Shown piece by piece: positions 17,349 to 33,170 of a stretch of DNA of 64,000 nt. Under the pieces are notes generated by a model that saw nothing but the letters and a program-made list of their open reading frames with translations, was not told where the DNA came from and ran no database searches. Origin of the DNA: Pilatotrama ljubarskyi. Its lineage: Eukaryota > Basidiomycota > Agaricomycetes > Polyporales > Polyporaceae. Made by a program: the position numbers and the translations under genes. Numbering within the stretch: the stretch's first letter is position 1; every line of letters starts with the position of its first letter. The DNA is taken from contig MU277695.1 in assembly GCA_022385805.1 (NCBI GenBank), positions 44,981 through 108,980 on the forward strand, in the 5' to 3' direction.

Positions 17349-19956
17349 CTATGCCGTGTCGGTGCCCGTGTCTGCCTCTGCCGCGTCGGGATCCGTGTCC
17401 GTGTCCGTGCAAGCCGACCTCTGACTCAGTCTCCGCTTGCGGGTATATAGTCGTTTCAGGGCATCCGTGGACTGGCTACTCGAGGCTGGTGCAATGGTGG
17501 CTCCGATTGCGGTCGACGGCAAGGTGAAGCATCCAGTGTCAGTGCTACCGATGGCGCTAGGGGTCGTCTCCAAGCCTCCCGACGAGCCCAAGGACACGCA
17601 GTAACTAGAGTGCCAGGTCTTCCGCTTCTTCTTGAAGGGTTGGGTATCGCTCCGCGCAGTGCCAGTGGTAGCCGGCTCGACGCTCTCGAGGGATCCGAGA
17701 GACAGCTCTGTGAGCGCGAAGCGGGACTCACATCGTTCCGTGCTTGCGTATGAGTACGTCGTTCCTCCCCAAGAGCGGTCGCTATGACCTCCGTCTTGCC
17801 TGCTTGCGGATCGTTCGGTGGTCTCGTCTGATGCTTCGTCTGTGGCCGCATTGTATGAATCCCCGCCATCCTCGTCGGAAAACTCTTCTTCCGGCAGCTT
17901 TTCCACACCATCGTCCACCCCATCTTCGTCGTCCGCCTCGTGGATGATGGTTGGATTGGCGGCCTGCCGAGCAAGCCAGGGGTGCTCGCATGCCCGAGCC
18001 ATCTTCATCCGCCGAGAGGGGTCCAAGTCCAAAAGCGCGGCCACGAAGATGCACCCTATGTGATCGATGAGACGGGAATAGAAGTCACGGACATCCAGCA
18101 AAAACCTGTACCTCGTCTGCTCATCTTGAGCTTCAGGGCGTTCCATCGGATTCTGGGTCCCAGGCTGGTCTCCTTGAACCCGAAGTTGAATGTCTCCAAC
18201 TTCCTCTTTATCGGGCCTGCAGGTACAAACCTGCACAAGTAACGTATCAGCATCACAACGGACAAGTCGAGTCCTATACCTACATCTCGAAGACCATCAC
18301 ACCGAGAGACCAGCTGTCGACCGTGGAGCTGTAACCACTCGGACTCTTGTCGGAAATCTCCGGAGCGATGTAAGCCGGCGTACCGCAATACGTCTATCTC
18401 TGAATGTCAGCATCGCGTATCCGTGCTTCGCTCTCTGTCCTCCCCTAACCTTGAGCAGCGTCTCGTTGTCTATCATCTTGGCAAGCCCGAAGTCGGCCAC
18501 TTTGGCCACGGGCGGATCATCCCTGGTCAGAAGCACGTTCTGAGGCTTCAGGTCGCGGTGTACGATCCCCCGATCGTGCAGATACTGGGAGAATGCGCGA
18601 AGTCTGAGAGACATCAGCGCGCTTGGGACAAGGCTACTCACCGAGAGTGCGTCGCAGATCTGGTAAGTGAAGTACCGAACCTCTGCTTCACCTGTGGGGG
18701 TGATGAGCGACATCACACAGGAGCTGCAAGAAGACTCACGCATCGAAGGGTGTCTTTTCTGGTAGTTCGACAGATTTCCACCTTGAAGGAGCTCCAACAC
18801 CAGGGCTGGACAGGTGAGCAGCACTCTCGCGAGGTGAACACAAAGCATCACTCACCGATGCTATCAGTGAAGATGAAGTACTCTTTCATCTCACAGATAT
18901 GCCGATGCTGCAGTCCTTTCATGATAGCAATCTCCCTCAGGATGTTGAAGGACTCCCTGGCTACGGGTGTCCTGTTCTCATCCTGCTTTCCGGACTCTCT
19001 GCTCTCGCCCTGCGTTCCGGACGTCCTGATCTCGCCCAGGGTTTCGGATATGCTCCCACCCTCGGTTTCGGATGTCCTGCTCTTACCATGTGCTCCGCAT
19101 GTCCTGCTATTTCCCTGCCTTCGGAGTATGGTACCCTTTACAATCTTCACCGCGTAGGATACTCCTTCGGTCTTGTGCAAGGCTTCGTATACCTTGCCGA
19201 AAGCACCCGAGCCTAACTCCCTGTTCATCTGAAGGTCGTATACCCGACGCAGGTCTTCTAGATCTTTCGACTTTGCCTTGATCCCCACATGATAAACGTA
19301 ACCTGTAACGCTATGAGAGAAGCGGATCGCCGCTGGTTTCAAGACCACGCACGCCATGCGAGATCTCCAGGACCCCCGGGTTCGTCCCCCAATTGCCCCA
19401 CAGCGACCTCGTTCCCGTCTTTCAGTACAGCATACTTCCCTTTTCCGATCAGCCTGTTTTGGATCTCATCGCATTCGAACTACGAGTCAGCCTCATGCGA
19501 TCACGCATATCGAGGGATGTGCTCACAAAAGTGCCGTTTCGTGAGCAATCACCGACGGTCACCGTATCCGCATACACGTCGTTCCGCAGCACCGTGAAAT
19601 GACGCGCACCTATTAGAAGGACAAAGGCGTGCGTGAGCAGCGCGGGTTGGAAGAGAGCGAGACGACTGACTTATGAAGTTGTCCTCCAACGCGTAGTCGT
19701 TGAGAGCGCTGTCGCGACCAATACGATAGCGGAATCTGTCAAACCTGAAGATGAGGCATTCGCGATCTGGCCGAGACGGGATGGGCTCCAGGACGCCCCA
19801 CACGTCGTCTTCCATCCACGGAGGACGGTGAGGAACGGCGTCCGAGTCCAGTGCCGGCTGAGGTTGAGTAGGTTCCATAATTCCGCCATCGTCAGAAGTC
19901 TGGCTTTCTCCGATCTCGCGAGCAATTGTAGAGCCAGTTTCTGCTACTTCAGACAT
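17349..19956 (-). CDS. Chk2/Cds1-like FHA-kinase, copy A
   Basis: Ten exons on the minus strand (19956-19671, 19609-19527, 19479-19353, 19302-18856, 18805-18740, 18691-18642, 18584-18450, 18393-18284, 18230-18112, 18055-17349), 709 residues. The N-terminus has a few SQ/TQ sites. The FHA domain has RYRIGR, then NGTF just before an intron. The kinase has the GSGAFG loop, AVK with Lys about 218, HRDLKPQN (Asp about 364), DFG (Asp about 384) and GTPAYIAPE. Thus every catalytic residue I look for is present. Unique to this copy is a roughly 50-residue insertion of degenerate 9-residue repeats between the Lys strand and the C helix. The acidic tail holds KKKRK and RKRR basic clusters of NLS type. 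It is the most divergent of the five. By family it would act in DNA-damage or replication checkpoint signalling in the nucleus. An upstream in-frame ATG lies at 19974. Confidence 0.88.
18960..19108 (-). repeat. 27-nt coding tandem repeat in kinase A
   Basis: About 5.5 degenerate units of nine codons ([50 protein letters not shown]) lie in exon 4 between the ATP-binding Lys strand and the C helix. None of the other four copies has it. Repeat expansion inside a kinase N-lobe is unusual. Confidence 0.8.
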
Positions 19957-30657: not shown

Positions 30658-33170
30658 TCAGCCCCGCCGACCAGCAGCCTTGCGAGGCGACGGTGCGGCA
30701 CCAGCGTTCAGACGGTTGGACCGCCTCCGCGCTGTTATAGCTGCAACACCATCTTCCGCGCCGTTGTCGTCTGCTGTCGTTTTCGCCCGAGTGCGCTTCG
30801 CAGTGGGCGGGTTGGCCGCGGCCTTCTTGCCTCCGCGGCCCTTCTTCGTCGGCGCAACGTTCGCCTTTCTACCGCGGGCTGCTGGCGCCGCGGCGTCGCT
30901 GGAAGGTTCTTCCTCCTCCTCGTCTTCCTCCTCCATGGGCGTCAGCGACGCGTCGAAGTCGAGTGCAGCCTTGCGCTTGTTCGCCCTCTGGGGGCCGGCA
31001 GCGTCCTCGTCTTCAGCAGCGGCGCGCTCCCGCATCTCCTGCGAGGGGCCGGGGAGGGGCACGCCGACCTCTTGTGCATGCGAGATGACGTTCGCACGGC
31101 GCTGGAGGCGCGACGGCTGCCGAGACAGGAGACCTCTGCTCGCTGTGCCGTCTTGGCTGTTGGGCAGTTCTTGCGAGCCCAGGGGCGGTGTGCCCTGGTC
31201 TATAGGCTGGGAGTCCATCACCTCAGCTGGGTGGTCAAGGGCCATGCCGTCGGATGCGATGGAACGCATCGAGGCATCGACGGCGTTTTCGGGGACGGGG
31301 GATGCAGTTCGACGATGGTACTCGGGGCGTTGGTAGAGACCAGCCTGCGTGCTCAGCCACGGGTGATGGCGAGCGCCAGAAAGAGACATGCGCTTCCGAG
31401 GGTCATACTCAAGAAGCTTGCGGATGAAATCTTCGCCTGCGAGAATCGTAAGCGCGCTGCCATTAATTTGAAGGGTAAACGGGTCTCGGACCTTGTGGGC
31501 TGACGTGATACTCGTGCAGGATGCCCCACTCGACTTGTCGACTTGACACGCGCGTCTTAACATCGGCACTCATGTCCTCTTCGCCGAACGGCGTAGACAT
31601 GGTGAGCCTGTGCAACGCATCAGCAAGCAGAGGATCGCCTAATGACGTGACTACTCACATAGAGAACACTATGACTCCCACACTCCAGCTATCGACAACC
31701 TGGTCGTAGCCTTCGTTGGGAGCCTGGTTGACTACCTCTGGCGCGAGGTAGACAGGCGTACCGCACATCGTCTGAAAAGCACGTGAGATTGGACTCCACA
31801 ATGTAATCAACACTACGTACGCGCAACATCGTCATGCTGTCGATGACCTTTGCAAGACCGAAGTCTGCAACCTTGACCACGGGCGGTTCATCAGTCGTCA
31901 ACAGTACGTTCTCTGGCTTGAGATCACGATGTGCGATGCCTTGACTGTGCACATACTGGAGGAATGTGAGTATCATATATGACAAATGGATGTCTCTACA
32001 CCTACAGCGAGGGCATCGCAGATCTGATAGGTGAGGTGCTGCGCCTCAGACTCCTCTATGTGCCCGTGAGTATGGAGGCTGTGAGATCTTCCCGAAGCCA
32101 CTCACGAAGTCCATTACGCTTCAGGATGTAGTCCAACAGGTCGCCGCCAGGAACCCATTCCAGCACAAGGTCTGTGGCCATCAATAATTCTGCCCCAAAG
32201 TAGCATAGACAAATTTTGCGACTCACTGATGCTGTAGCTCTCGAAGAAGACCTCCTTCAACTGACAGATGTTCGGGTGATGGAGCCTTTCGAGAATGTTG
32301 ATCTCCCGTGCAAAGTTGGTAGACTTGTCGTTCGTCTGCGCGCCATTCAGGCTCGCGTTGCTGAGGCCCTTCCGGAGCTTGTTCGCCTGGATCATCTTGA
32401 CGGCGTACCACTTGCCCTCTTCCTTGTGCAGCGCCTTCATGACGGTGGCGAACGAGCCCTTACCCAGCTCGTGCATTAAGTCATAGAATTTGTGCAAGCC
32501 ACGACTCGGTGGACCGCTTGCCATGTGTCGGTACACGAAGCCTAGCCAGAGGGTTGGGAACGCGTCGATGAGATAGAGCGAGAGACGCACGATAGTCTTC
32601 CAGCCCTCCGTTCGCAGGTTGGGGCACGCACGTCCCGAACGCGATCTCGTTCCCGTCGCGCAACACCTTGAAATGGCCCTTTCCGATCTTCTCGCCGTTG
32701 ATCTGATCGCGAACAATAGCTGCAGCCCATTAGACCGCGGCGAAGAGGGGTACGATACGTACGAAGGTGCCATTGCTCGACAAGTCCGTGACCTTGACCG
32801 CAGACCGGGGGCCCTCATCTCCATCCCATTCGATGATGCAGTGGAAGTTGCCTGAAGCGAGCAAGACGCGTCAGAAAGGAGGGAACGCGCGCGGAGAAAC
32901 GCGTCGCGACTGACTGATCTTCATGCCGGGAAGGATGATATCGTTCTTGTGCTGCTCGGTGTTGCGGCCGATCTGGTACTTTGGCTTGAGCTTTTGGAAG
33001 TCGATGCGGCGCAGGTTCGCGCTGCAGGGGATGAGGAAGCCCCAGAGGTGCGCGTCCACGACGTAGTCTGGCTGGGACGCCTCTTGGGTGGACTGGGTCG
33101 GCTGCTGGGTTTGCATGACGCCCTCGTCGGTGACCATCGCGTCCGCCATGTTTTGGTCTTCTGCTGGCAT
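30658..33170 (-). CDS. Chk2/Cds1-like FHA-kinase, copy E
   Basis: Ten exons (33170-32915, 32851-32763, 32702-32591, 32541-32227, 32171-32106, 32055-32006, 31955-31821, 31771-31659, 31607-31492, 31436-30658), 676 residues in closed frame. The order is an N-terminal SQ/TQ cluster ([16 protein letters not shown], residues 21-36), an FHA domain (YQIGR at 65-69, [22 protein letters not shown]) and a kinase domain from about 175. Kinase features are GKGSFA, AVK with Lys 201, HRDLKPEN with Asp 307, DFG with Asp 327 and [10 protein letters not shown] basic tail follows with [15 protein letters not shown], Glu runs, Lys/Arg clusters and RRRSNRLN. This is the layout of Chk2/Cds1, which in other fungi is activated by ATM/ATR phosphorylation and FHA-mediated dimerisation. 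It is nearest to the Brc1/Rtt107 gene and reads as the best-kept copy. Intron 9 uses a GTCCGA donor. Confidence 0.92.

What the first reader, a model, noticed from the sequence alone, without database searches (positions are those of the whole stretch)
17349..33170. Tandem array of five Chk2/Cds1-like FHA-kinase genes
Five genes in 15.8 kb on one strand have the same plan: SQ/TQ cluster, FHA domain, kinase, basic tail. They share ten coding exons with matching phases; exon 6 is 50 nt in every copy and exon 7 is 135 nt in all but the interrupted C. Studied yeasts carry one to three such kinases, dispersed (Cds1 and Mek1; Rad53, Dun1 and Mek1). Here A, B and E read as intact, C is interrupted and D is broken. 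A locus of repeated duplication and decay of a checkpoint kinase is unusual. It could mean sub-functionalised damage signalling, mating- or fusion-stage roles, or conflict-driven turnover; those roles are inference.
Basis: partly seen in the sequence, partly recalled or inferred. Interest (0 to 1): 0.88.

Follow-up and report, generated by a model that had tools for sequence, protein, structure and literature searches.

The report
Tandem array of checkpoint kinase genes
In this wood-decay fungus a DNA-damage checkpoint kinase gene stands in a row with four extra copies: two look intact but have changed fast, one was hit by a mobile-DNA remnant, and one is broken.

Summary
Window 17349-33170 (minus strand) has five Chk2/Cds1/Rad53-type FHA-kinase genes with ten matching coding exons. 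Protein E is identical to one of Pilatotrama ljubarskyi, Polyporaceae. They are not assembly duplicates: copies share 49-66% of coding bases. E is the slow, conserved form; A-D belong to a second Polyporaceae clade changing about five times faster. Plain decay is not the whole story: in 40 extra copies, 13 catalytic positions show 0 changes in 520 cells, while substrate-pocket positions fixed in 41 E-type proteins vary; A and B carry such changes, mostly shared with Trametes cingulata. C is interrupted by a 205-bp solo-LTR-like element; D is a pseudogene. Another FHA kinase, Mek1-like in look, lies on another contig. Best reading: birth and death around a checkpoint kinase, with some copies kept as active kinases of altered specificity. 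No expression or functional data were available. A RAD53 excess in Ganoderma lucidum (6 genes) is already in print (PMC3342255).

The parts
30658..33170 (-). Gene E: conserved Chk2/Cds1/Rad53-type kinase, 676 aa, 10 exons, 4 SQ/TQ before the FHA domain
   Evidence: identical to P0001 (P. ljubarskyi)
27413..29820 (-). Gene D: pseudogene; in-frame TAA in exon 1 (29736-29734), frame change in exon 4, altered T-loop; public annotation keeps a 400-aa fragment without FHA (P0194)
24060..26665 (-). Gene C: FHA kinase, exon 7 interrupted; public model P0097 gives 676 aa with a 57-nt intron inside the insert
25153..25357 (-). 205-bp TG...CA solo-LTR-like insert in exon 7 of C, between catalytic loop and DFG motif; 5-bp duplication GACAA at 25358-25362 and 25148-25152
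   Evidence: absent from the T. cingulata counterpart P0072
20907..23358 (-). Gene B: intact FHA kinase, 642 aa, identical to P0116; DFG+1 Leu to Val and P+1-loop Leu to Trp
17349..19956 (-). Gene A: most diverged open copy (704 aa in public model P0121); alpha-D Asp to Asn, KPEN to KPQN, P+1-loop Leu to Ile; 2 SQ/TQ before the FHA domain
18969..19048 (-). 27-bp tandem repeat, three copies, within the open frame of exon 4 of A; falls in a stretch predicted as disordered before the alpha-C helix of the kinase
26847..26959 (-). Upstream element of C, 79% like one upstream of D over 114 aligned nt; a 96-base query over most of it finds only itself and D's element in the genome
30021..30130 (-). 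Upstream element of D, like that of C

Best explanation
The locus is a birth-and-death array around a conserved DNA-damage effector kinase. Shown: E belongs with the Chk2/Cds1/Rad53-type proteins of other Agaricomycetes and changes slowly; A-D fall in a clade of extra copies that nests with the Polyporaceae E type. Shown: that clade keeps its catalytic residues while changing about five times faster. Inferred: copies A and B (and C before the LTR hit) take the same input as Chk2 (ATR/ATM on the SQ/TQ cluster, FHA binding of phosphothreonine, T-loop phosphorylation) but phosphorylate other sites or act at other stages, because substrate-pocket residues fixed in the E type have changed. D is a pseudogene; C is probably impaired by a solo LTR in a kinase exon, unless the annotated intron is really used.
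For: Gene models and phases; FHA+kinase in A, B, E and public C; Rad53/Chk2 best solved relatives of E and A. Careful tree (73 rows): all Polyporaceae rows one clade at 100/100 (54 rows), extra copies one clade within it at 98/93 (33 rows), B+A lineage 100/100, C lineage 100/99; D sits with C in the quick tree. Mean depth from the Polyporaceae node: 0.949 for 33 extra copies, 0.189 for 21 E-type. Of 78 kinase columns invariant in 41 E-type rows, the 13 classic catalytic ones have 0 of 520 changes in 40 extra copies, against a mean of 6.8% over the 78 (permutation P 0.0001); six substrate-pocket columns average 17% (P 0.017). Pocket changes shared with T. cingulata: A D268N and L350I (2 of 2), B L330V and L350W (2 of 2).
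Against: No expression, activity or deletion data. dS between copies is saturated, so no codon test of selection was possible. The AU test does not reject duplication inside the Trametes clade (p 0.062), and the Polyporaceae E-type rows are not resolved as one clade, so one old duplication is not secure. The substrate-pocket set was chosen after some substitutions had been seen; one column (L350, 16 of 39) carries much of it, the other five average 12%; a seventh named column was not invariant in the E type and was left out. The B changes occur in 2 of 8 B-lineage rows only, and KPQN of A in P. ljubarskyi only. Two of the 40 extra copies (O. rivulosa_2, S. latifolia_2) fall outside the clade. 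Fast change, a broken D and an interrupted C also fit slow decay.
Confidence: 0.7

Rival explanations
1. The extra copies are redundant and drifting: relaxed selection after duplication, no new function, with D dead, C interrupted and A and B to follow.
For: D is broken and C carries an LTR-like insert; extra copies change about 5 times faster; A has fewer SQ/TQ sites (2; its T. cingulata counterpart has 5) and a tandem repeat inside the kinase.
Against: 0 changes in 520 cells at 13 catalytic positions over 40 extra copies, against 6.8% on average at E-invariant columns; extra copies in 22 of the 25 Polyporaceae species picked. Caution: the hit lists are capped at 120 and favour well-conserved copies.
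Confidence: 0.2
2. Conflict-driven turnover: the extra kinases are decoys or weapons against something that attacks checkpoint signalling (for example selfish nuclei or viruses).
For: Fast change with copy turnover; a HET-domain gene lies about 7 kb from E.
Against: No partner found or sought, positive selection not measurable here, and catalytic residues are kept, which a pure decoy would not need.
Confidence: 0.07
3. Assembly artefact: one locus repeated by mis-assembly or uncollapsed haplotypes.
For: None found; read depth was not available.
Against: Coding identity 49-66% between copies; T. cingulata has counterparts of A, B, C and E on contigs of one and the same length.
Confidence: 0.01

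Closest known systems
Chk2/Cds1/Rad53 effector kinases (CAMK/RAD53 family)
   Same: SQ/TQ cluster, one FHA domain, CAMK-type kinase, basic tail; E groups with proteins of other Agaricomycetes, some of them named cds1 or CAMK/RAD53 by their source. C. neoformans has a Rad53 with one FHA domain (PMC6315099, passages).
   Different: Copies beyond E are tandem, fast-changing, and differ at substrate-pocket residues.
ChkC/Mus-59, the second Chk2-like kinase of filamentous ascomycetes
   Same: An extra FHA kinase of Chk2 type beside the main one (PMC3591445, passages).
   Different: Said there to be absent from basidiomycetes; the copies here nest with the Polyporaceae E type. ChkC itself was not put in a tree.
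RAD53-annotated gene excess in Ganoderma lucidum (PMC3342255, section 9 read)
   Same: Table 3 counts 6 RAD53 (K02831) genes in G. lucidum and 0-2 in six other Agaricomycetes; extra copies of three other Ganoderma species fall in the same clade as A-D.
   Different: That section gives only the count: no gene order, tree, rates or residue analysis. G. lucidum itself was not in my trees.
Mek1-type meiotic FHA kinases
   Same: FHA plus CAMK-type kinase; a candidate lies at G000:C2, about 435.8-437.6 kb.
   Different: A separate locus; it was not put in a tree with the array copies. The Mek1 label is recalled and untested.

Membership tests
Chk2/Cds1/Rad53 | FHA domain N-terminal to the kinase | tested here: met
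   A, B, E; public C. D: FHA-coding exons present but the gene is broken.
Chk2/Cds1/Rad53 | Kinase domain closest to Rad53/Chk2 | tested here: met
   E and A by PDB sequence search; B and C only by their place beside E in the tree, which holds no yeast or animal Chk2.
Chk2/Cds1/Rad53 | N-terminal SQ/TQ cluster (recalled rule: at least 3 within 100 residues) | tested here: inconclusive
   Before the FHA: E 4, B 6, C 4, A 2; met for E, B, C, not for A of this species (its T. cingulata counterpart has 5).
Chk2/Cds1/Rad53 | FHA phosphothreonine-binding residues (Arg, Ser, His, Asn; recalled) | tested here: inconclusive
   All four kept in E, B and A; C has Gly for Asn at 112.
Chk2/Cds1/Rad53 | Intact catalytic residues and T-loop threonine | tested here: met
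   E, B, A and public C; D has Ser for the T-loop Thr and is a pseudogene.
Chk2/Cds1/Rad53 | Activation by ATR/ATM after DNA damage | not testable with these tools
   Needs experiment.
Mek1 or Dun1 | Array copies group with Mek1 or Dun1 rather than with the E type | not tested
   No Mek1 or Dun1 reference was in the trees; array copies nest with Polyporaceae E-type at 100/100.
Assembly duplicate | Near-identical copies without unique flanks | tested here: not met
   49-66% coding nucleotide identity.
Solo LTR (insert in C) | TG...CA ends, 5-bp target duplication, repeated in the genome | tested here: met
   Insert itself; 18 matches including itself, many partial; of three other copies read, two have perfect 5-bp duplications and one an imperfect one with GG for TG. 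A parent element with two LTRs was not looked for.

The most novel reading that the evidence does not exclude
Polyporaceae evolved a second class of Chk2-type kinases: a tandem-amplifying, fast-changing clan that keeps the full catalytic core and mostly the phosphothreonine pocket but retunes the substrate pocket copy by copy (A loses acidic residues expected to bind Arg at -3 and -2; B gains a DFG+1 Val expected to favour Thr), so that one DNA-damage input is routed to lineage-specific outputs.
Probability: 0.35. Interest if true: 0.72.

Novelty: new variant of a known kind. Interest (0 to 1): 0.52.

Why it matters
Checkpoint effector kinases are few in the fungi described in the papers seen: U. 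maydis lacks Chk2 (PMC3591445 and PMC6315099, passages), and six Agaricomycetes have 0-2 RAD53-annotated genes (PMC3342255, section 9). A clade in which Chk2-type copies multiply and change fast while staying catalytically intact offers a natural series for asking how kinase specificity evolves and what extra damage signalling a long-lived dikaryotic wood decayer needs. Species such as T. versicolor, where the capped lists showed one extra copy, make the question testable.

Tried and rejected
Assembly duplication: rejected. The idea that the array is the only FHA-kinase locus: first suggested, then rejected when a relaxed FHA scan and a second kinase query met at one place on C2. Array copies as stand-ins for a missing Mek1: weakened by that locus. 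The six non-array FHA matches have no kinase motif of the kind searched in their 3-kb loci. Shared MCB-like promoter boxes: ACGCGT upstream of B (two) and E (one), none upstream of A, C or D. Pairwise dN/dS: dS saturated. AU tests: duplication inside the Trametes clade not rejected (p 0.062), A+B of P. ljubarskyi and T. cingulata as one clade not rejected (p 0.474), A outside all other extra copies not rejected (p 0.071). Structure models: mean pLDDT 65 (C) and 64 (A); FHA and most of the kinase lobes confident, the LTR-derived stretch of C (318-367) and the repeat-bearing stretch of A (224-272) under 50; no fold search was run. Papers: nine searches answered; in these listings only PMC3342255 was seen to bear on RAD53 numbers in this group. 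PMC5310086 (passages) reports rad53 transcripts in Pisolithus fruiting bodies; in the held text of PMC2944786 the terms mek1, checkpoint, chk2, cds1 and kinase were not found.

Selection of rows: 82 rows were picked by hand out of 255 proteins returned; for the careful tree 9 were dropped as long, partial or broken (S. latifolia_2, O. rivulosa_2, D. nitida_2, E. typhae_1, T. coccinea_3, D fragment, G. adspersum_3, G. sinense_3, T. elegans_3). The 40 extra copies are those picked rows without D; they include the other dropped extra copies and two species outside Polyporaceae. P0143 (T. pubescens, no FHA) was left out of every tree. Lists show the best 120 hits only, so copy numbers per species are lower bounds and favour conserved copies.
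Full report
What is there. The window lies on a 343,667-base contig of a 33.1-Mb fungal genome. The protein of gene E is 100% identical to a Pilatotrama ljubarskyi protein (P0001), a Polyporaceae species. Five genes lie head to tail on the minus strand at 17349-33170. Ten exons each could be modelled with introns of 47-77 nt, GT-AG but for one GC-AG (B intron 3); phases are 1,0,1,1,1,0,0,2,1 in A, B, C and E, with matching boundaries in D, whose frame shifts in exon 4. 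Exon 6 is 50 nt in 5 of 5, exon 7 is 135 nt in 4 of 5. The public annotation has five proteins of this species on contigs of one length, 346,781 bases: E P0001, B P0116, C P0097, A P0121, D P0194, the last a 400-residue fragment.

What the proteins are. A, B and E carry FHA and Pkinase domains (FHA 34.7, 58.3 and 60.0 bits; 45.2 for A with the public exon 3); public C has FHA at 59.7 bits. The nearest solved structures of E and of A by sequence are Rad53 and Chk2. SQ/TQ sites before the FHA domain number 4 in E, 6 in B, 4 in C and 2 in A. Coding identity between copies is 49-66% and synonymous sites are saturated, so the copies are old and not assembly duplicates.

What is broken. D has an in-frame stop in exon 1 and a frame change in exon 4. 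C has 210 extra bases in exon 7 with two in-frame stops: a 205-bp sequence beginning TG and ending CA, flanked by GACAA on both sides. The sequence gives 18 matches in the genome, itself included and many of them partial; of three other copies read, two show perfect 5-bp duplications (CAGCT, TAAGA) and one an imperfect one. This is what a solo LTR looks like. The T. cingulata counterpart P0072 lacks it. The public model of C bridges the stops with a 57-nt intron; in a structure model the extra residues form a disordered stretch between catalytic loop and DFG while the FHA domain and most of the kinase are confidently predicted. Whether C is dead therefore turns on that intron.

History. In the careful tree (73 rows, 406 columns) the Polyporaceae rows form one clade (54 rows, 100/100). 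The extra copies form one clade inside it (33 rows, 98/93); within the Trametes part there are a B lineage that also holds A (10 rows, 100/100) and a C lineage (14 rows, 100/99); D groups with C in the quick tree. The Polyporaceae E-type rows are short-branched but are not resolved as one clade (two groups, 8 and 13 rows; one clade at 88). The AU test does not reject a tree with the duplication inside the Trametes clade (p 0.062), so the depth of the first duplication is likely but not secure. Obba rivulosa (Gelatoporiaceae) and Sparassis latifolia also have a second copy, outside this clade and on long branches. By equal contig length, E-type and at least one extra copy share a contig in 9 of 10 comparable Trametes-clade species (P. 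ljubarskyi, T. cingulata, T. punicea, T. meyenii, T. elegans, C. lactineus, T. pubescens, T. polyzona, L. betulinus; not T. coccinea) and in 0 of 6 other Polyporaceae (G. adspersum, G. sinense, G. leucocontextum, L. tigrinus, D. nitida, C. squamosus). In G. adspersum three extra copies bear close locus tags (004902, 004903, 004908), a separate cluster. T. versicolor and D. squalens were set aside because the listed names point to different strains; T. maxima, T. gibbosa, Cubamyces sp. BRFM 1775 and F. fomentarius because no E-type protein of theirs was listed.

Rates and constraint. Mean depth from the Polyporaceae node is 0.189 for 21 E-type rows and 0.949 for 33 extra copies, a factor of 5.0; between P. 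ljubarskyi and T. cingulata the distances are E 0.026, C 0.102, B 0.222, A 0.666. If this were plain decay, catalytic residues should fail as well. They do not: at 13 classic catalytic positions (list recalled) there are 0 changes in 520 cells over 40 extra copies (D left out; 38 of the Polyporaceae clade and 2 outside it), against 6.8% on average at the 78 kinase columns invariant in 41 E-type rows, 37 of which show no change (permutation P 0.0001). Six substrate-pocket columns that are invariant in the E type average 17% (P 0.017). That set was named after some of the substitutions had been seen, a seventh column was left out because the E type itself varies there, and without L350 the mean is 12%, so this second P value is indicative only. 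In A the alpha-D Asp is Asn and the P+1-loop Leu is Ile in both species, and KPEN is KPQN in P. ljubarskyi alone; in B DFG+1 is Val and the P+1-loop Leu is Trp in P. ljubarskyi and T. cingulata but in none of the other six B-lineage rows. That such residues set preference for Arg at -3 and -2 and for Ser or Thr is recalled knowledge, not tested here. In the FHA domain the pocket residues are mostly kept among the 40 extra copies (Arg 37, Ser 36, His 36, Asn 34); C has lost the Asn.

Other FHA kinases. A second FHA-kinase gene lies at about 435.8-437.6 kb of contig C2 (FHA hit, kinase hit, pieces). Its look suggests Mek1, a label from memory. The genome thus has a separate candidate for a meiotic role, and the array need not fill it. 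Six-frame searches work exon by exon, so further FHA kinases may have been missed.

How it most likely works (inferred). E does the ordinary job: ATR/ATM phosphorylate its SQ/TQ cluster, the FHA domain binds phosphothreonine on a partner, the T-loop is phosphorylated and the kinase acts on checkpoint substrates. A and B receive the same kind of input (A perhaps less, with two SQ/TQ sites) and act on a shifted set of sites or at other stages. Tandem position favours unequal exchange, giving copies such as C and D, which also share an upstream element (only these two found), and losing others.

Prior art. The G. lucidum genome paper lists 6 RAD53-annotated genes against 0-2 in six other Agaricomycetes (PMC3342255, section 9 read). 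ChkC is described as an ascomycete second Chk2, with basidiomycetes lacking it and U. maydis lacking Chk2 altogether (PMC3591445, passages); C. neoformans has a Rad53 with one FHA domain (PMC6315099, passages). In the nine answered paper searches no listed paper was seen to describe a tandem array, its rates or its residue pattern; only listings were looked at for most, and preprints and most subscription journals are not held.

Verdict. A real, well-described array; new in detail, of a known kind. Interest is moderate: the tie between copy turnover, fast change and an untouched catalytic core is the surprising part, and it is directly testable.

Noticed in passing
about 33990-37990 (minus): Next to E lie ORFs that look like one BRCT gene: 36809-37990 matches BRCT over the cut-off, 34477-36666 only weakly; solved relatives by sequence are Rad4/TopBP1 BRCT modules. 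A DNA-damage scaffold beside the checkpoint-kinase array may be coincidence; the gene was not modelled.
   Followed up: partly
40066-41613 (minus): HET-domain gene (heterokaryon incompatibility).
   Followed up: no
L052 (G000:C2:434000-439500): Separate FHA-kinase gene with pieces matching both FHA and kinase queries; Mek1-like by look.
   Followed up: partly
58941-59669 and 61168-62184 (plus): Two neighbouring ORFs with very similar C-terminal sequence by eye; the second matches the TAP-like hydrolase family: perhaps another tandem pair.
   Followed up: no
G000:C21, C114, C4 and C19 matches: The two halves of the LTR-like sequence lie about 0.9-1.3 kb apart at four places, as if the element carried an extra internal segment or a nested insert.
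   Followed up: no
16904-16985 (plus): A 35-nt sequence repeated exactly, 47 bases from start to start, downstream of gene A.
   Followed up: no
6862-9078 (minus): HAM1-like domain gene.
   Followed up: no
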